Notes under the pieces: generated by a model
Told to the model about the DNA's origin: nothing
Seen by the model: only the letters and a program-made list of their open reading frames with translations
Database searches by the model: none
Position numbers and translations under genes: made by a program
Assembly: GCA_021159235.1 (NCBI GenBank)
Contig: JAGGSF010000039.1
Location: 1-7,538, forward strand
Direction of reading: 5' to 3'
DNA length: 7,538 bases
Source of the DNA: Deltaproteobacteria bacterium
GTDB taxonomy: Bacteria; Campylobacterota_A; Desulfurellia; JAGGSF01
Part shown: positions 168 to 7,538 of the stretch, one piece after another
How positions within the stretch are numbered: position 1 is the stretch's first letter
Layout: each line of letters starts with the position of its first letter

Positions 168-659
168 ATGAAAGTAGTCGTGCTGGAACCTCTAAAGTGT
201 ACAGGCTGCAGAGCATGTGAGTATGCCTGTTCATTTGCCCACACAGGCTTATTCAATCCATTGGATTCCCGTATCAAAATCAATACATTTTTAGAAGACC
301 TGAGTTTTATTCCCTCAATCTGCATGCAATGTGAAGAACCTTACTGTATGGAGGTATGTCCTACCGGAGCACTTACCAAAAATGCAGAAACGGGCGTTGT
401 TGAGTTTGAAAGAAACAGGTGTATCGGATGTAAACAGTGTATCATCGCATGTCCGTGGGGATCGATAAAATTGAATCACACTGGCAGAGAAATCATCAAA
501 TGCGATTATTGTGGTGGGGATCCAGAATGCATAAAGGTATGCGCCGCAAGAGCGCTTACCTTTGAAGAAGTGGAAGACATGGTAACAGCTAAACAAAAGA
601 AGGTTGCCACCAAGTATAAAGAGATTGCAAAGGAGATAGCAAGGGGGGTGAACCCATGA
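168..659 (+). CDS. aorA: AorA-type polyferredoxin electron-transfer subunit
   Basis: This 163-residue cytoplasmic Fe-S protein should carry electrons between the pterin enzyme encoded next and the flavoprotein after it. It has 16 cysteines in four clusters: C11/14/17/21, C52/55/60/64, C85/88/91/95 and C112/115/121/125. That is enough for four [4Fe-4S] centres, in the HycB/DmsB-like two-by-two arrangement. There is no signal peptide and no membrane segment. The last 30 residues are a lysine- and glutamate-rich helix without cysteines. Length and gene order match AorA of the NAD-reducing aldehyde oxidoreductase of Aromatoleum aromaticum, where repeated AorA-AorB units build a filament capped by AorC. 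The GGAGGTG at 157-163 sets the start, and the stop overlaps the next ATG by four bases. Fold and cofactor count are clear; assignment to AorA rests largely on context. Confidence 0.9.
   Translation: MKVVVLEPLKCTGCRACEYACSFAHTGLFNPLDSRIKINTFLEDLSFIPSICMQCEEPYCMEVCPTGALTKNAETGVVEFERNRCIGCKQCIIACPWGSIKLNHTGREIIKCDYCGGDPECIKVCAARALTFEEVEDMVTAKQKKVATKYKEIAKEIARGVNP
643..650 (+). promoter_or_regulatory. ribosome binding site of aorB inside aorA
   Basis: GGGGGGTG ends five bases before the ATG at 656 and lies within the last codons of aorA. It supports this start and adds independent initiation to the coupling given by the ATGA overlap. Confidence 0.7.
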
Positions 660-2470
660 TCAAAGGTGGTTATCAAGGCAAAATCCTCAGGGTAAATCTT
701 ACTAATGGAAATGTAAAGATAGAAGATATCAATGAAGAATGGGCAAAAAAATACATTGGTGGAAGAGGATATGGAACACGAATTATATATGAAGAAGTAG
801 ATCCAGCGGTAGACCCTCTTTCAGAAGATAACAAGGTAATTATTGCCACCGGCCCGCTTGATGGAACATTAGCTCCTTCATCGGGAAGAGTTATGGTTAT
901 CACAAAAGGAGCGTTGAATGGTGCAATTGCCTGTTCAAACTCAGGCGGTCATTTTGGCCCTGCGCTTAAACAAACAGGTTACGATATGATAATACTGGAG
1001 GGAAAAGCAAAAGAACCTGTTTATCTGTGGATAAACAAAGGAAAAGTGGAGATAAGGAATGCAGGAAATTTATGGGGAAAACCTGTAAATGAGGCCGATA
1101 AGCTAATGAGAAAAGAAACGCATCCAGAAGCAGAGACAATGGTGATAGGTCCTGCAGGAGAAAAACTTTCATTGATTGCAAATGTTATGTTCAATGGTCA
1201 TAGAGCAGCTGGAAGAACAGGTGTAGGTGCGGTAGTGGGCAGCAAGAATCTAAAAGGAATTGCTGTAAGGGGAAATCTTGATATAAAGGTGGCTGAGCCA
1301 GAAAAATTCATGGAAGCAGTATACGAGACAAGAGATATTCTCAGTAAAGATGCATTCTCTGGTGGCGGTGGAGCGAAATATGGAACTGCAGTGCTTGTAA
1401 ATGTAATTAACGGCATCGGAGGACTGCCCACAAGAAACGCACAGGATGCATACTTCCCAGAAGCGGAAAAAATCAGTGGAGATGCACTTGCAAAAAACAA
1501 TCTTGTAAGGAATGAAGGCTGTGACAATTGCCCAATTGCATGCGGAAGAGTAACAGAAATAAGAGAGGGAAAATACAAAGGAGAAAAAGGGACAGGACCT
1601 GAATACGAATCAATATGGGCACTGGGAGCAATGTGTGGTGTCTCCGATCTAAATGCTATTGTTATGGCAAATTATCTCTGTGACAGATATGGGCTGGATA
1701 CAATCTCAGCCGGTGCTACTGTCGCCTGTGCAATGGAGTTATATGAAGGGAGATACATACCAAAGGAAGATGCACCAGTTCCACTTCAATTTGGCTCAGG
1801 TGATGCACTGATAGAGACGATAAAACTAATGGGAGAACAGAAAGGAAAACTTGGTAAGCTATTAGCACAGGGCTCTTACAGACTTGCAGAACACTACGGT
1901 CATCCTGAACTTTCCATGAGCGTAAAAAAACAGGAATTTCCCGCTTATGACCCCAGAGCCATTAAGGGCATCGGATTGGAGTATGCAACAAGTAATAGGG
2001 GCGCCTGTCATGTAAGAGGCTATACAGTTGCAGCAGAAGTTTTAGGTAATGTTGACAGGCTGAAATATGAAGGTAAAGCCGAGCTTACCAAAACATTTCA
2101 GGATTTAACCGCTGCTCTTGATTCAACCGGCATATGTCTATTTACAACATTCGGACTGGTTGGAAAAAATATCGCAGCACTTTACTCCACTGCAACAGGA
2201 TTTGAATGTGATGAAAAAGAATTCCTGAAGATTGGTGAAAGAATATGGAATCTTGAAAAGCTCTTCAACTTAAAAGCAGGATTTACACGAAAGGACGATA
2301 CATTACCACTTAGAATTTTAAAAGAGCCTATAAAAACAGGTCCATCAAAGGGAGAAATAGAAGAACTTGATAAAATGTTAGATGATTATTATAAGGTAAG
2401 AGGCTGGGGTAAGGATGGTGTTCCCATGAAGGAGAAATTAGAAGAACTTGAATTATCTGATCTAATATGA
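656..2470 (+). CDS. aorB: tungsten/molybdenum-pterin aldehyde:ferredoxin oxidoreductase, catalytic subunit
   Basis: This 604-residue cytoplasmic enzyme should oxidise aldehydes to carboxylic acids, or reduce acids in reverse, at a bis-pterin tungsten (or molybdenum) centre beside one [4Fe-4S] cluster. Its length and motifs match the AOR family end to end. The cluster ligands are C289, C292, C296 and C494, almost the same numbering as Pyrococcus furiosus AOR (288/291/295/494). Two pterin-contact motifs are seen, DRYGLD at 343-348 and DSTGIC at 489-494. H452 (CHVRGY) and a glutamate in GPEYES (314-319) correspond to the proposed catalytic His and Glu. The N-terminal pterin domain includes GGRGYG at 35-40. 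It starts within the aorA stop (ATGA) and ends in an ATGA overlap with the next gene. The preferred aldehyde, and W versus Mo, cannot be read from sequence; subfamilies such as FOR or benzoyl-CoA reductase BamB are less likely on length and neighbours. Confidence 0.95.
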   Translation: MIKGGYQGKILRVNLTNGNVKIEDINEEWAKKYIGGRGYGTRIIYEEVDPAVDPLSEDNKVIIATGPLDGTLAPSSGRVMVITKGALNGAIACSNSGGHFGPALKQTGYDMIILEGKAKEPVYLWINKGKVEIRNAGNLWGKPVNEADKLMRKETHPEAETMVIGPAGEKLSLIANVMFNGHRAAGRTGVGAVVGSKNLKGIAVRGNLDIKVAEPEKFMEAVYETRDILSKDAFSGGGGAKYGTAVLVNVINGIGGLPTRNAQDAYFPEAEKISGDALAKNNLVRNEGCDNCPIACGRVTEIREGKYKGEKGTGPEYESIWALGAMCGVSDLNAIVMANYLCDRYGLDTISAGATVACAMELYEGRYIPKEDAPVPLQFGSGDALIETIKLMGEQKGKLGKLLAQGSYRLAEHYGHPELSMSVKKQEFPAYDPRAIKGIGLEYATSNRGACHVRGYTVAAEVLGNVDRLKYEGKAELTKTFQDLTAALDSTGICLFTTFGLVGKNIAALYSTATGFECDEKEFLKIGERIWNLEKLFNLKAGFTRKDDTLPLRILKEPIKTGPSKGEIEELDKMLDDYYKVRGWGKDGVPMKEKLEELELSDLI

Positions 2471-3696
2471 GACACATAATTGTAGGTGCAAGCATAGCGG
2501 GATTGTCTGCTGCAAAAAAGATAAAGGAAATTAGTCCAGAAGATGAAGTAGTAATTGTTTCAGGAGAAAAGGTAAAACCATACGGCAAAATGACCCTTAC
2601 TTACCTTCTTTCTGGAGAAGTTGCAGCAGAAAATTTCTATCTTGATGTTCCCGGTGGAATAGAACTTCTGTTAAACAAAAAGGTTGTAAAAATAGACCCG
2701 GGTAAGAGAACTGTTATAACTGATTCCAACGAGGAATTTTCTTATGATAAACTACTTATTGCAACCGGTGCACATGCGTATATTCCAGAGATACCCGGCA
2801 GTACATTCCCCTCAGTCTTTTCGGTGAGAAATCTTGAAGATATAGAGAAAATAAAAAGTAGAATCAAACAATCCAATGAAAAAAGAGTGATACTCTCGGG
2901 TGCGGGGCTTATAAATACGGAAATTGGTGACGCACTGTTTAAAATCGGCATTCCCATCACCTATGTTATTCATTCCAATAGAGTTCTTTCCCAAATTATT
3001 GATGAAGAAGCATCAAGAATTGTAGAAAAAAGGCTTTTAAAACAGGGAATTGAAGTGCTCAAAGGCGAAAGCATTAAAGAAATAGAAGAAAAAGATGGGG
3101 TAACCTTTGCAACACTTGAATCAGGAAAAGTACTCAAAGGATCCTGTGTTATTTTTGGAAAAGGCGTAAGACCAAATACAGATCTTCTCAAAGACTCGAA
3201 AATCAAAACAAACAGAGGAATTCTTGTCGATGAACATCTTGAAACAAATGCAAGGAATATATATGCTGCAGGAGATGTGGTGGAAACAAAAGATATTGTT
3301 TACGGCGATAGGCGACTGCATGCACTCTGGCCAGTAGCAGCCGAACAGGGGAAAATTGCAGGAGCAAATATGGCTGGAGTGCCGCTCACCTATCCAGGCG
3401 ATGTATCAAGGAACACTCTCACCGTCTTTGGAATGACCATATTCACAGGAGGCATGAGCAGAGAGGGTAAATTTGATGTGTATAGAAAAATGGAAAATGG
3501 CGAATACAGGAAAGTAATTTTAAAGGATGGAAAACTTAAAGGTTTTATATTTACGGGAGAGGTTGATAACCCTGGAGTCTATATTTACATAATGAAAAAT
3601 GAGATTGAAGTAGACAAACTTGAAAGTCCTCTTCTCTATGGGAGTATATCTTTTTCGGATTTGCATTCGCCTGCAAGGATACGAACCTTTCAATGA
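2467..3696 (+). CDS. aorC: AorC-type FAD/NAD(P)-dependent oxidoreductase subunit
   Basis: This 409-residue flavoprotein of the pyridine nucleotide-disulfide/NADH:rubredoxin reductase fold should pass electrons from AorA to NAD(P)+. Motifs in order are the N-terminal FAD-binding GASIAG (7-12), the LLIATGA strand (97-102), a second Rossmann motif GAG-x4-E (145-152) for NAD(P), and AAGD (267-270) contacting FAD. Residues from about 315 on form the C-terminal interface domain. The only cysteine, C227, is not in a CxxC or CxxxxC pair, so it is not a disulfide reductase and electrons must leave through Fe-S partners. It starts inside the aorB stop (ATGA) with no good Shine-Dalgarno sequence, which suggests reinitiation by ribosomes finishing aorB. 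Gene order and length agree with AorC of the bacterial AorABC complex. NADH versus NADPH preference is not evident. Without context it would be called a generic FAD-dependent oxidoreductase. Confidence 0.88.
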   Translation: MRHIIVGASIAGLSAAKKIKEISPEDEVVIVSGEKVKPYGKMTLTYLLSGEVAAENFYLDVPGGIELLLNKKVVKIDPGKRTVITDSNEEFSYDKLLIATGAHAYIPEIPGSTFPSVFSVRNLEDIEKIKSRIKQSNEKRVILSGAGLINTEIGDALFKIGIPITYVIHSNRVLSQIIDEEASRIVEKRLLKQGIEVLKGESIKEIEEKDGVTFATLESGKVLKGSCVIFGKGVRPNTDLLKDSKIKTNRGILVDEHLETNARNIYAAGDVVETKDIVYGDRRLHALWPVAAEQGKIAGANMAGVPLTYPGDVSRNTLTVFGMTIFTGGMSREGKFDVYRKMENGEYRKVILKDGKLKGFIFTGEVDNPGVYIYIMKNEIEVDKLESPLLYGSISFSDLHSPARIRTFQ

Positions 3697-4376
3697 AAAA
3701 CAAAGAGATAAAAAATTCTCATCCTTTTATCATTAAAAACTGCATGCTCACCACAATTGCAACGGGAGAAAAAGCAGAAAGTTTAAGAGAATTAAGGGAC
3801 AAATTAATGGACATTCATCCAGGTAGTGTATACTACCATTTCTGGGGTGGGCTTTTATCTCCTCGCTTTGAAGAACCAGAATTTAACAACGATTTTGCAG
3901 CCTGGGCTTACCGTGCTCTGCGCGATCCAGTTCTGGCTGAAAGATTGGCCATGATTGACCCCACACCCTTTGCCGACATAGAGGATTTACGCCAGGAAGT
4001 AATAGAGGTAATAGAAGAGAGATTGTATGAAACAGAAATAGTGCCGGTGGTAAAACCTGATGAAGCGTTCTGCTTCATCAGGTCACAAATTGTTATCTTT
4101 GATACCTACAGACGCCTCATAGAACCAAAAGAACTTGCCTCAGTTGTCCCCACTCTATCCGGAGGAAGTATCTTTTACCATTTCATCGATGCCAGAAGGC
4201 GCACCGATGAAAGAATCGATGATTTTCGCGCCTGGCTTAAAGGATTCGGCAATACATATAATGACCTGTGCGATATGCTCGCTGCCGTTGACCCTTACTT
4301 CACCACCCTGGTTGAATTGCGAAAAACCCTCTCAAAGATATTTAAAACCTATTTTGGGGAAGATGAAAAAGCTTGA
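3693..4376 (+). CDS. DUF5752-like protein with two internal repeats
   Basis: A 227-residue soluble protein of unknown function. I place it in the DUF5752 family from memory of the pattern YYHFWGG...PEFNNDFAAWAYRALRD, not from a search. It is an internal duplication. Residues 11-50 align without gaps to 125-164 and share a closing G-S-[VI]-[YF]-Y-H-F. DFAAW (67-71) matches DFRAW (177-181), and the DP at 89-90 matches 200-201 before a similar helix. The conserved His, Asp and Trp suggest a binding or catalytic pocket per repeat, but no metal or cofactor motif is certain. There is no signal peptide or membrane segment. It overlaps aorC by ATGA, with only a distant AAGGA (3675-3679) as ribosome site. 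M18 (3744) is an alternative start but would cut the first repeat. The 14-base overlap with the glycosyltransferase gene suggests the two proteins act together. Confidence 0.8.
   Translation: MKNKEIKNSHPFIIKNCMLTTIATGEKAESLRELRDKLMDIHPGSVYYHFWGGLLSPRFEEPEFNNDFAAWAYRALRDPVLAERLAMIDPTPFADIEDLRQEVIEVIEERLYETEIVPVVKPDEAFCFIRSQIVIFDTYRRLIEPKELASVVPTLSGGSIFYHFIDARRRTDERIDDFRAWLKGFGNTYNDLCDMLAAVDPYFTTLVELRKTLSKIFKTYFGEDEKA
3723..4352 (+). repeat. divergent tandem duplication within the DUF5752-like gene
   Basis: Protein residues 11-111 and 125-220 are diverged copies of one module of about 100 residues. The first 40 residues align without gaps. Both copies contain L-x3-(L/V), then G-S-aromatic-Y-H-F, then an acidic stretch leading to D-F-x-A-W, then a D-P before the last helix. 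Identity is low, so the duplication is old and not visible at the DNA level. Confidence 0.75.
4055..4083 (+). repeat. perfect 12-bp inverted repeat (hairpin) inside the DUF5752-like gene
   Basis: Twelve bases at 4055-4066 (ACCTGATGAAGC) are the exact reverse complement of 4072-4083, with a five-base loop GTTCT. The hairpin spans codons 121-131, the junction where the second protein repeat begins. No T-run follows, so it is not an intrinsic terminator. It could pause translation, protect mRNA against 3'-5' decay between the aor genes and the downstream pair, or mark an old insertion or duplication joint. Role unknown. Confidence 0.85.
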
Positions 4377-5598
4377 CCTCTACACCAGTATAGTAGGTAA
4401 GGATGTTATAGAGGAACTCCATCAATTAGCTGGTCTTTTGAAAGGAAGGAAGGTTGTTCACGTCAATTCTACTCGAAAAGGCGGTGGTGTGGCAGAAATT
4501 CTGAGAAGATTGGTGCCTTTGATGTGTGAACTGGGGATCAAAACCAAATGGAAGGTCATAACCGGTGATGATGATTTTTTCAAATGCACAAAAAGTATGC
4601 ATAATGCTCTTCAGGGCAACCCGATAGACATCCCTGAATCTCTCTTGAGAATATACGAAAAAACAAATGCTCAAAATGCAGAAGTTTTGAGAAAAGAACT
4701 TGAAGAAGCGGATATTGTATTTATTCATGACCCTCAACCTGCTCCCCTTATAAAATTCTGCCCAGATAGGAGAGGAAAATGGATCTGGCGATGTCACATA
4801 GATATTAGTAGACCACAAAGACATATCTGGAAATACTTGAGAAATTTTGTAGTGGATTACGATGCCAGCATTTTTTCTATCGTCAACTTCGCACAGAGAT
4901 TACCTCACCCTTTATACATTATTCCACCCAGCATCGACCCTTTAAGTGAAAAAAATAAAGATTTAGATGCTAAGGAAGTCTATTCGGTCTATGATGGATT
5001 GGGAATAGATATGGGGAATCCCATTATACTACAGGTGTCTCGTTTTGACCGATTCAAAGACCCCGTAGGTGTTATTCAATCCTATAGACTTGTAAAGAAT
5101 TTTACACCTTCTGCACAACTCGTGCTGGCAGGAGGTCCAGCAACAGACGACCCTGAAGGAAAAGTTGTATTAGAGGAGGTAAAAACAGCAGCAGGAGATA
5201 ACCCTAACATCCACATCCTGTTGTTGCCTCCCGAATCGGATAGAACAATCAATGCTTTGCAACGAGGAGCAGATATTGTTCTCCAAAAATCTATAAAGGA
5301 AGGTTTCGGATTGACGGTAACGGAAACGATGTGGAAGGGTAAACCTGTCATTGGCGGCAATACAGGTGGTATTAGACTTCAGGTTATCAACCATCACACG
5401 GGTTTTCTCGTCAACACCCCCGAAGGTGCAGCTCTGCGTGCCCGCTATCTGCTGCACCATCCCGAGAAAATTAAAGAAATGGGATATAAAGCCAAAGAGT
5501 TTGTCAGAGCAAATTTCCTGATAACACGACATCTAAGAGACCATCTAACCTTGATGATCAGCATACTTTATGGTGTTAAAGAAAGAATTGAGTTGTAA
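4363..5598 (+). CDS. treT: GT4 glycosyltransferase, trehalose synthase TreT-like
   Basis: This 411-residue GT-B fold, retaining glycosyltransferase resembles TreT, which makes trehalose from NDP-glucose and glucose in the cytoplasm. Family landmarks run the whole length: HVNSTRKGGGVAEIL (33-47), HNALQG (80-85), IHDPQPAPLI (121-130), WRCHIDIS (142-149), IIPPSIDPLSEKN (186-198), QVSRFDRFKDP (224-234), LVLAGG (253-258), and the E-x7-E donor motif E313/E321. The start at 4363 is chosen because the typical TreT N-terminus begins there. The frame stays open up to an ATG at 4135, but those 76 extra residues overlap the previous gene and do not look like the family. Initiation overlaps the preceding stop by 14 bases, with a GGGG close upstream, so translation is probably coupled. 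The acceptor cannot be proved from sequence: bacterial relatives may act on other sugars. Family assignment is firm, trehalose product less so. Confidence 0.88.
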   Translation: MKKLDLYTSIVGKDVIEELHQLAGLLKGRKVVHVNSTRKGGGVAEILRRLVPLMCELGIKTKWKVITGDDDFFKCTKSMHNALQGNPIDIPESLLRIYEKTNAQNAEVLRKELEEADIVFIHDPQPAPLIKFCPDRRGKWIWRCHIDISRPQRHIWKYLRNFVVDYDASIFSIVNFAQRLPHPLYIIPPSIDPLSEKNKDLDAKEVYSVYDGLGIDMGNPIILQVSRFDRFKDPVGVIQSYRLVKNFTPSAQLVLAGGPATDDPEGKVVLEEVKTAAGDNPNIHILLLPPESDRTINALQRGADIVLQKSIKEGFGLTVTETMWKGKPVIGGNTGGIRLQVINHHTGFLVNTPEGAALRARYLLHHPEKIKEMGYKAKEFVRANFLITRHLRDHLTLMISILYGVKERIEL

Positions 5599-5615
5599 TT
5601 TTTCAATTCGTTTTT
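5585..5615 (+). terminator. possible bidirectional terminator between convergent genes
   Basis: GAATTGA (5585-5591) and TCAATTC (5603-5609) form a 7-bp stem with an 11-base loop spanning both stop codons, and a T5 run follows at 5611-5615. A second dyad, TAAAAGC (5615-5621) with GCTTTTA (5627-5633), lies just beyond. The genes are only four bases apart, so each terminator would have to use the other gene's 3' end. The stem is AT-rich and weak, so termination may be leaky. Confidence 0.4.
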
Positions 5616-6985
5616 AAAAGCGAACAGCTTTTATCCGGACCCAATGGATCTTTTGTAGTTGAATAAGCATAAGCCCTGCATCCACCGCCGCAAATCTTGT
5701 AATACTTACAACTCTTGCACCTCTCTTTAATAGGTGCTGCATCCCTTAAACTATTAAACAGCGGACTATTGGTCCATATGTCCATAAAAGGCCTATCTTT
5801 CACATTGCCTGCCACTGGTTCATAAGGTGAAAACATACAGGGAGAAACGATACCATTGGGCTGAATATTGCAATAGTACCTGCCCGCTGGACACCCACCG
5901 AACATACTTAAAAACGGTCTGACTACAGCATTCTTTACACTGGCATTGAAAAATGTGGTGATGGGGAAACACAAACCGGTTATAGGCTTATAATCTTCCT
6001 TTCTCGCCTTTTTTATTTGAGAAGTAATCACTTCAAAATGTGGTGTCTCGCAAACGATATCAATATCCACCTCATCTATCTTTTCTGCCAATTTTTTATA
6101 GAGCCTCCATCTGGTTTGAGGATCAATATCATACTCCAATATTTCATCTGCTCTTCCCACAGGAATAAAGGGAAAAATAACGATACGATGAGCCCCAAGT
6201 TCCTGAGAAAAATCAATCAACTCAAACGCCTCATCTATATTGTACTTATGCATCGTGACACCAATAGCCGTAACTATACCTACTTCATTCAAGTTTTTTA
6301 CAGCCTGAACCGCTTTTTCCCAGGAGCCCTTCACCCCTCTAAATTCATCATGCGTTTCTGGATTTATACCATCTATACTCACCTGAGCATAATCAAGACC
6401 ATTTTCCTTCAATTTCAAAGCCATGTCTTTATCAATAAGCGTTCCATTTGTATCTATGGACACAAATACATTGTAGCTTTTTGCAATTCTCAAGGCATCA
6501 AAAAAATGGGGATACATTAACGGTTCTCCACCAGAGAAGGTTATAGATGATAGCCCTGCTTCGCCCAACTCTTTTACCACCTCTAACTTTCTCTCATCAC
6601 TCATCTCGTCCGGGAGAGGGTTGCCTGCTCTCTGAAAACAATGCTTACATTTAAGATTACATACATTGCTCAAATTATAAACAACAGAAAATGGAGCCCT
6701 GATCTTTAAGGGTTCCTGATACCCATACATCTGAACACCCTGCAGTGAATTTACAAACAACTTCCTAACACTACAATCCTTCATGCTTTCCTTCACTATA
6801 TTGGAAGGAAATCCTAAAAACTTCTCTGCCAGAGCAAGAAGAGTGGTCAGGGTTTTAATATCCCTATTTTCTCCTGTTTCTGCCCACAGGGATAATTTCT
6901 GTTCCAAATTACCGGTATCGATGTTTCTGACCAATCTATCTACTGCCATCTTTTTCATAAACTGCGTAAAAGTCGCCATCTCCAT
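5603..6985 (-). CDS. radical SAM/SPASM enzyme, candidate AOR maturase (Cmo-like)
   Basis: A 460-residue radical SAM protein. After an N-terminal helical region of about 100 residues comes the SAM-cluster motif C109-x3-C113-x2-C116, then SGGEP (151-155) for SAM binding. The C-terminal SPASM domain has all expected ligands for two auxiliary [4Fe-4S] clusters: C365, C372, C383, then C423-x2-C426-x5-C432-x3-C436, and C454. Such enzymes mostly modify peptides or assist cofactor assembly. A radical SAM gene (cmo, 'cofactor modifying protein') accompanies aor in Pyrococcus, so a role in maturing the AOR is a reasonable inference, not shown by sequence. A heme-, PQQ- or RiPP-type function is an alternative; no small precursor peptide gene was found nearby. 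ATG at 6979 (458 residues) is probably the true start, since GGGGG at 6986-6990 lies six bases before it but directly abuts the ATG at 6985. A promoter is predicted at 7017-7045. Confidence 0.87.
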   Translation of the reverse strand: MEMATFTQFMKKMAVDRLVRNIDTGNLEQKLSLWAETGENRDIKTLTTLLALAEKFLGFPSNIVKESMKDCSVRKLFVNSLQGVQMYGYQEPLKIRAPFSVVYNLSNVCNLKCKHCFQRAGNPLPDEMSDERKLEVVKELGEAGLSSITFSGGEPLMYPHFFDALRIAKSYNVFVSIDTNGTLIDKDMALKLKENGLDYAQVSIDGINPETHDEFRGVKGSWEKAVQAVKNLNEVGIVTAIGVTMHKYNIDEAFELIDFSQELGAHRIVIFPFIPVGRADEILEYDIDPQTRWRLYKKLAEKIDEVDIDIVCETPHFEVITSQIKKARKEDYKPITGLCFPITTFFNASVKNAVVRPFLSMFGGCPAGRYYCNIQPNGIVSPCMFSPYEPVAGNVKDRPFMDIWTNSPLFNSLRDAAPIKERCKSCKYYKICGGGCRAYAYSTTKDPLGPDKSCSLLKTN

Positions 6986-7052: not shown

Positions 7053-7538
7053 TTAAAAGATATGAACGGCAGAGGCTTTAAAGGTAATATAAGCTGTCTC
7101 TCCTTCCCTTAGTTGCATATTCTCTAAAGACTGCCTGGTTATCATAATCTTGAATGGAATACCTGTATCCACTGTTACTTTAGCAGTTGCCCCCGAATTT
7201 ACTATTCTTACTATTTTCCCCTTCAATGAGTTTCTGGCGCTGGATTTAAACGGTTGTTTGGAAATCAAGATTTCCTCCGGCCTAACAGAAACAAACACCT
7301 CCCCAGATTTCTTACCGGTAGAAAAGATATCTACACCATCTACATTGATATGAGCGGAACCATTTTCTACAATAGATTTTCCTCTGAATAGATTTTCTAC
7401 TCCCACAAAATTCGCCACAAATTCACTGTTGGGTTTTCTGAATATCTCCTCCGGCCTGCCTACCTGAATAATTCTTCCCTCATTCATCACAGCCACTCTA
7501 TCTGCAAGGGAAAATACCTCTTCAAAATTGTGCGTCAC
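7053..7538 (-). CDS. molybdate/tungstate-type ABC transporter ATPase, C-terminal part
   Basis: This is the 3' portion of a gene running off the right edge: 161 residues are visible, and the first codon seen (GTG) is an internal valine, not a start. The fragment opens at the switch histidine of the ATPase (V-T-H-N-F-E-E), followed by LADRVAVMNEGRI and the QVGRPEEIF stretch (25-33) typical of CUT/MOI-type importers. A regulatory domain follows, with VSVRPEEI (83-90) and a Mop-like TOBE module from SARNSLKGK (100-108) to KASAVHI (154-160). The SARN and KAS signatures are those of oxyanion-binding Mop domains, so the substrate is most likely molybdate or tungstate (ModC/WtpC class). The Walker A, signature and Walker B motifs lie outside the window. 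It stands upstream of, and in the same direction as, the radical SAM gene, 67 bases away. Metal supply to the AOR is an inference from context. Confidence 0.87.
   Translation of the reverse strand: MTHNFEEVFSLADRVAVMNEGRIIQVGRPEEIFRKPNSEFVANFVGVENLFRGKSIVENGSAHINVDGVDIFSTGKKSGEVFVSVRPEEILISKQPFKSSARNSLKGKIVRIVNSGATAKVTVDTGIPFKIMITRQSLENMQLREGETAYITFKASAVHIF

What the first reader, a model, noticed from the sequence alone, without database searches (positions are those of the whole stretch)
3693..5598. DUF5752-like protein and TreT-like glycosyltransferase built into an aldehyde oxidoreductase operon
Seen: four consecutive gene overlaps (4, 4, 4, 14 bases) tie two sugar-related or unknown genes to aorABC. 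Selection for such tight coupling suggests stoichiometric or co-regulated products. Possibilities: an NDP-sugar or trehalose step that answers the same stress as aldehyde removal; glycosylation of the aldehyde, acid or a complex subunit; or simple operon capture. The DUF5752-like protein would then be a partner or regulator of the glycosyltransferase. I know of no described system with this five-gene set.
Basis: partly seen in the sequence, partly recalled or inferred. Interest (0 to 1): 0.7.

Follow-up and report, generated by a model that had tools for sequence, protein, structure and literature searches.

The report
Trehalose gene pair behind aldehyde-oxidoreductase operon
Two genes that sit side by side in trehalose (stress-sugar) operons of many bacteria have, in one small Desulfurella-like lineage, ended up directly behind an unrelated tungsten aldehyde-oxidizing operon, so the five-gene string is a local rearrangement of known parts rather than a new system.

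Summary
Five genes overlap by 4, 4, 4 and 14 bases: AorA-like Fe-S protein, AOR, AorC-like FAD protein, DUF5752, TreT-like glycosyltransferase. The reading of a five-gene system is not supported.

In this genome 67 of 297 same-strand neighbours overlap by exactly 4 bases, and runs of four or more overlaps recur. Elsewhere DUF5752 is the immediate upstream neighbour of TreT: 79 of 80 named loci in many phyla (the exception is a contig end) and 81 of 81 full-length hits in 80 further genomes. Typical partners are OtsA, OtsB, fused TPSP, TreZ-like amylase or glycogen synthase.

AOR is not a partner: 2 of those 80 genomes encode one, on other contigs. aorABC is conserved in the window's phylum, but none of 15 loci with a readable 3' side is followed by the pair. 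Only the window and one congener show the link; a third congener's contig ends inside DUF5752.

The window's TreT nests among Desulfurellales TPSP-DUF5752-TreT operons, and the genus has lost the TPSP fusion. DUF5752 is homologous to the solved Thermoproteus tenax protein OrfY (4cso). Best reading: a relocated trehalose pair, probably co-transcribed with aor. DUF5752 is probably a protein partner of TreT; that role is inferred.

The parts
168..659 (+). AorA-like small subunit with Fe-S ferredoxin domains
   Evidence: Pfam Fer4 families; best solved relative is 8c0z_C of the AorABC enzyme, E 2.8e-36
656..2470 (+). AorB-like tungsten aldehyde:ferredoxin oxidoreductase catalytic subunit
   Evidence: AFOR_N/AFOR_C; PDB 9mqx 2.8e-214, 1aor 1.2e-189, 8c0z_A 1.2e-173
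2467..3696 (+). AorC-like FAD/NAD(H) subunit
   Evidence: Pyr_redox_2; best solved relative is 8c0z_E of AorABC, E 6e-48
3693..4376 (+). DUF5752 (OrfY-like) protein, 227 aa, two tandem copies of one module; probable partner of TreT
   Evidence: PF19027 1.7e-80; 4cso profile match 1.5e-38; model Z 21.7 to 4cso; internal repeat hhalign 99.4%, 7.4e-22
4363..5598 (+). TreT-like GT4 trehalose synthase, 411 aa; EX7E motif at residues 313-321
   Evidence: PF21269 8.9e-60; PDB 6zj4 2.9e-130, 2x6q 8.1e-114; motif scan

Best explanation
The five-gene string is two separate modules joined end to end. aorABC is the ordinary three-subunit tungsten aldehyde oxidoreductase operon conserved through the phylum. 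DUF5752-TreT is an ordinary trehalose-synthesis pair inherited from a TPSP-DUF5752-TreT trehalose operon of Desulfurellales. In the window's genus the TPSP gene was lost, a second trehalose operon (OtsA-DUF5752-TreT-OtsB) is present, and the old pair lies directly behind aorC, where it is probably transcribed from the aor promoter. [quoted passage not shown] DUF5752 most likely acts as a non-catalytic, translationally coupled protein partner or regulator of TreT, not of AOR. Shown by sequence: module identities, pairing, neighbourhoods, tree position, absence of the aor link in relatives, purifying selection. Inferred: co-transcription, TreT activity here, the role of DUF5752, and that the pair moved in one event.
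For: TreT lies next to DUF5752 in 79 of 80 named loci and 81 of 81 full-length DUF5752 hits in 80 genomes of two more phyla. Neighbours are OtsA/OtsB/TPSP in 45 of the 80 named loci; eight loci sampled from the rest all lie beside TreZ-like, MalQ/amylase or glycogen synthase genes. 2 of 80 such genomes encode any AOR, on other contigs. aorABC orthologues occur in 23 of 25 genomes of the phylum; 15 loci with a readable 3' side are not followed by the pair. G018 carries both modules apart, on C9 and C48. The window's TreT with its two congeners is sister to Desulfurellales TPSP-operon TreTs, 100/99 support. GT20 survives in the genus only as OtsA of the second operon. A TreT start lies within -16 to +20 bases of the DUF5752 stop in 82 of 88 loci. 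DUF5752 is acidic (median charge -12, pI 5.1), which speaks for a protein partner rather than a DNA binder. dN/dS 0.16 and 0.09 for DUF5752 and TreT. Precedent: in T. tenax a GT4-family protein activates TPSP by complex formation (PMC3634074).
Against: No expression or biochemical data. The link is seen in two genomes, both fragmented contig sets. The window's TreT is below the cut-off of the one TreT equivalog model, which is limited to Thermococcales (418.8 versus 775 bits). PDB calls OrfY a 'transcription factor', which would make DUF5752 a regulator of genes rather than a subunit.
Confidence: 0.88

Rival explanations
1. Functional coupling: trehalose synthesis and aldehyde removal answer the same stress in this genus, so selection placed the pair under the aor promoter for co-regulation.
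For: Tight overlaps in the window and in G001; all five genes under purifying selection. Trehalose is a stress solute (PMC3634074).
Against: Seen in two genomes only. Neighbours behind aor vary in relatives (LysE translocator, MoeA), so this is a variable slot. aorBC and the pair have different recent divergence (dS about 1.0 versus 0.37-0.48). G002 has no aor DNA at all yet keeps the pair.
Confidence: 0.15
2. The glycosyltransferase modifies an AOR subunit or an aldehyde/acid product, and DUF5752 presents the substrate.
For: Adjacency only.
Against: TreT is close to solved trehalose synthases along its whole length, with the EX7E motif kept. 78 of 80 genomes with DUF5752-TreT have no AOR.
Confidence: 0.02
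3. DUF5752 is a transcription factor that regulates the trehalose genes, as the PDB name of OrfY suggests, rather than an enzyme partner. (This rival concerns only the role of DUF5752, not the two-module reading.)
For: 4cso is named OrfY protein, transcription factor; the fold matches it over 210 residues, Z 21.7.
Against: Family strongly acidic; no other PDB match shows a DNA-binding fold above background, HapR/SmcR rows being at Z about 2; the gene is always directly coupled to TreT in the same direction.
Confidence: 0.25

Closest known systems
AorABC of Aromatoleum aromaticum (PDB 8c0z; PMC6365974, PMC10413684)
   Same: Three subunits in the same gene order; AorA-like and AorC-like genes have 8c0z chains as best solved relatives
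   Different: In Aromatoleum aorD and aorE (MoaD-like) belong to the operon (PMC6365974); here DUF5752 and TreT follow. The AOR subunit is closer to 9mqx and to 1aor than to 8c0z
TreT trehalose synthase (EC 2.4.1.245; PDB 6zj4 Thermoproteus uzoniensis, 2x6q Pyrococcus horikoshii)
   Same: Full-length homology (2.9e-130), GT4 family, EX7E and RFDxxKDP regions kept
   Different: Activity not tested; gene context is aor; below the Thermococcales equivalog cut-off
OrfY of Thermoproteus tenax (PDB 4cso)
   Same: Same family as DUF5752: profile E 1.5e-38, Z 21.7, 3.1 A over 210 residues
   Different: 24-25% identity; named a transcription factor in PDB, but no held paper describes its function
Trehalose synthase complex of T. 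tenax (msc-gt-tpsp operon, PMC3634074)
   Same: A GT4-family protein, TPSP and a mechanosensitive channel in one operon; in Desulfurella-like genomes an MscS-like gene adjoins TPSP next to DUF5752-TreT
   Different: The paper's GT is closest to PimA and is distinct from TreT; no DUF5752 is mentioned; in the window's genus TPSP has been lost

Membership tests
TreT trehalose synthase | TreT_GT1 N-terminal domain plus GT4 C-terminal domain over the whole length | tested here: met
   PF21269 201 bits (cut-off 27), PF00534 86 bits; 6zj4 over residues 5-403
TreT trehalose synthase | GT4 retaining EX7E motif | tested here: met
   EGFGLTVTE at residues 313-321
TreT of Thermococcales (NCBIfam NF041139 equivalog) | Score above the curated equivalog cut-off | tested here: not met
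   418.8 bits against a cut-off of 775; so it is not filed under that order-specific equivalog, only under the broader TreT family
[quoted passage not shown]
   needs an enzyme assay
DUF5752 / OrfY (PF19027) | Score above the Pfam gathering cut-off, full-length | tested here: met
   269.7 bits against 23, positions 2-207 of 208
DUF5752 / OrfY (PF19027) | Fold of the solved member 4cso | tested here: met
   AF2 model pLDDT 90.4; TM 0.77/0.80, Z 21.7
AorABC aldehyde oxidoreductase | Fe-S, AOR and FAD subunits encoded in that order | tested here: met
AorABC aldehyde oxidoreductase | Tungsten content and NAD-coupled aldehyde oxidation | not testable with these tools
   a WtpC tungstate-transporter fragment lies at 7053-7538, which is only circumstantial
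T. tenax-type trehalose synthase complex | TPSP present with its activating glycosyltransferase | tested here: not met
   No TPSP found in the window's genome; GT20 only as OtsA of the second operon
T. tenax-type trehalose synthase complex | Physical complex | not testable with these tools
   needs co-purification

The most novel reading that the evidence does not exclude
DUF5752/OrfY is an obligate, widespread regulatory subunit of one branch of TreT. Its two-fold repeated H...(N/D)DFxxW module would bind a sugar or nucleotide-sugar and gate trehalose synthesis. In this genus its expression has been put under the control of an aldehyde-oxidizing operon.
Probability: 0.3. Interest if true: 0.45.

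Novelty: new member of a known kind. Interest (0 to 1): 0.27.

Why it matters
The aor link itself is a local rearrangement and matters little. The useful by-product is that an uncharacterised family, DUF5752, which already has a solved structure (OrfY, 4cso), is an almost invariant upstream partner of TreT across many phyla. That makes the role of DUF5752 in trehalose synthesis directly testable.

Tried and rejected
Viral contigs: no relative of the window's DUF5752 protein. Papers: no held paper mentions DUF5752, or OrfY together with T. tenax or trehalose. L044 (CSMAG_150), the only named locus with AOR within 8 kb: about 2.9 kb separates AOR from DUF5752, with a metallophosphoesterase ORF, an opposite-strand ORF and an unknown ORF between, so not the same arrangement. 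Promoter and terminator scans gave no more hits than shuffles, so a separate promoter for the pair can be neither shown nor excluded. A second look for other folds related to DUF5752 gave nothing above the background. DUF5752-TreT fusions: none seen in the loci read. Whether orfY adjoins treT in T. tenax could not be checked with the tools.

Full report
What is there. The window holds, on the + strand, an AorA-like Fe-S protein (168-659), an aldehyde oxidoreductase (656-2470), an AorC-like FAD protein (2467-3696), a DUF5752 protein (3693-4376) and a TreT-like glycosyltransferase (4363-5598). On the other strand follow a radical SAM/SPASM protein (5603-6985) and the end of a WtpC-like tungstate transporter ATPase (7053-7538).

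Is the overlap pattern special? No. In 411 kb of the same genome 67 of 297 same-strand neighbours overlap by exactly 4 bases, and 13 runs of four or more consecutive overlaps occur (gene starts were taken as the longest ORF, so the count of overlaps of any length is an upper bound). Overlap lengths also differ between congeners.

What the two genes are. The glycosyltransferase matches solved trehalose synthases over its length (6zj4 2.9e-130, 2x6q 8.1e-114) and keeps the EX7E motif. DUF5752 matches PF19027 at 1.7e-80 and, by profile, PDB 4cso, OrfY of Thermoproteus tenax, at 1.5e-38. An AlphaFold2 model (pLDDT 90.4) matches 4cso at TM 0.77/0.80 and Z 21.7 over 210 residues. The protein is an internal duplication: its two halves align with each other at 99.4% probability and E 7.4e-22, and the invariant H, D and W residues repeat in both halves. 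The family is acidic, median net charge -12 and pI 5.1, which speaks against, but does not exclude, the DNA-binding role implied by the PDB name.

Whose partner is DUF5752? In 80 named loci from GTDB species (Thermodesulfobacteriota and other 'Deltaproteobacteria', Bacteroidota, Pseudomonadota, Aquificota, Spirochaetota, Krumholzibacteriota, Cyanobacteriota, Actinomycetota and others) TreT is the next gene in 79; the exception is a contig end. In two further phyla, 81 of 81 full-length DUF5752 hits in 80 genomes have TreT directly downstream on the same strand. Eight of 89 TreT hits in these genomes have no DUF5752 upstream, so TreT can occur alone. 45 of the 80 named loci carry OtsA, OtsB or TPSP nearby. 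Eight loci sampled from the remaining 35 all carry TreZ-like, MalQ/amylase or glycogen synthase genes next to the pair. The pair is therefore a trehalose/alpha-glucan module. Only 2 of the 80 genomes encode any AOR, on other contigs, and only L044 of the named loci has an AOR within 8 kb, with other genes between.

Where did the aor link arise? Three of the same-class genomes match named contigs by length and coordinates (Desulfurellaceae or Desulfurellales MAGs: CAJXLZ010000048.1, JALTDI010000138.1, JALVTR010000148.1), which places the window in that lineage. aorABC orthologues occur in 23 of 25 genomes of the phylum. I read 15 aorABC loci outside the window's genus whose 3' side is visible; none is followed by DUF5752-TreT, and the next gene varies (LysE translocator, MoeA, opposite-strand genes). 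In the related G018, aorABC (C9) and TPSP-DUF5752-TreT (C48) are apart. In a tree of 85 TreTs the window and its two congeners form one clade (100/98), sister (100/99) to the TreTs of three Desulfurellales TPSP operons. The genus has no TPSP gene; its only GT20 is the OtsA of a second operon, OtsA-DUF5752-TreT-OtsB, whose TreT is a distant paralogue. So the pair is the remnant of a TPSP operon now lying behind aorC. Whether it moved, or aor moved next to it, cannot be told.

How firm is the link in the genus? It is read through in the window and in G001 (L022). In G002 the contig starts inside DUF5752, and neither the AOR protein nor the aor DNA is found in that genome, although it is rated 100% complete. 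Between the window and G001, aorB and aorC are more diverged (dS 0.95 and 1.05) than aorA, DUF5752, TreT and the radical SAM gene (dS 0.33 to 0.50), with a drop in identity from about base 700 to 3700. This suggests a replaced or faster-evolving aorBC segment and does not fit a closely co-selected five-gene unit. DUF5752 and TreT remain under purifying selection (dN/dS 0.16 and 0.09), so the pair is probably functional.

How it most likely works. [quoted passage not shown] DUF5752 would act on TreT itself, as a partner or regulator made in step with it: a TreT start lies within -16 to +20 bases of the DUF5752 stop in 82 of 88 loci. There is a precedent for control of prokaryotic trehalose synthesis by a protein partner: in T. 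tenax a GT4-family protein activates TPSP by complex formation (PMC3634074). AorABC would oxidize aldehydes independently, as in Aromatoleum (PMC6365974). Co-transcription of the two modules is likely from the overlaps but is not shown.

Verdict. Observation confirmed; interpretation partly right (partner of the glycosyltransferase; operon capture) and otherwise not supported. The arrangement is lineage-specific and its parts are known kinds. The family-level regularity of DUF5752-TreT is the more interesting result.

Noticed in passing
window 700-3700 against L022 (G001): aorB and aorC are much more diverged between congeners (dS about 1.0; FAD subunit 70% identical) than flanking genes (dS 0.33-0.50), as if this segment had been replaced or evolves faster.
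   Followed up: partly
L025 (G002:C114) 1: The third congener's contig starts inside DUF5752, and no aor protein or DNA was found in that genome although it is rated 100% complete.
   Followed up: partly
window 3693-4376; L014 472-3201: DUF5752 is a tandem duplication, and a single copy of the half-module occurs inside response-regulator plus PPDK_N proteins of about 1000 aa in other phyla.
   Followed up: partly
L029 7382-11538 (G000:C1): The same genome has a second, complete trehalose operon OtsA-DUF5752-TreT-OtsB whose TreT and DUF5752 are distant paralogues of the window's (about 26% identity for DUF5752).
   Followed up: yes
L026, L027, L028, L033 (L013): An MscS-like mechanosensitive channel gene adjoins the trehalose genes in Desulfurella-like genomes, and a 223-aa ORF with membrane-like sequence sits between OtsA and DUF5752 in G033, recalling the T. 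tenax msc-gt-tpsp operon.
   Followed up: no
window 5603-6985 (-): Radical SAM/SPASM protein, conserved downstream of TreT in all three congeners; it scores below the NCBIfam equivalog cut-offs shown, with NirJ2-like models best and the tungsten-cofactor oxidoreductase maturase model weaker.
   Followed up: no
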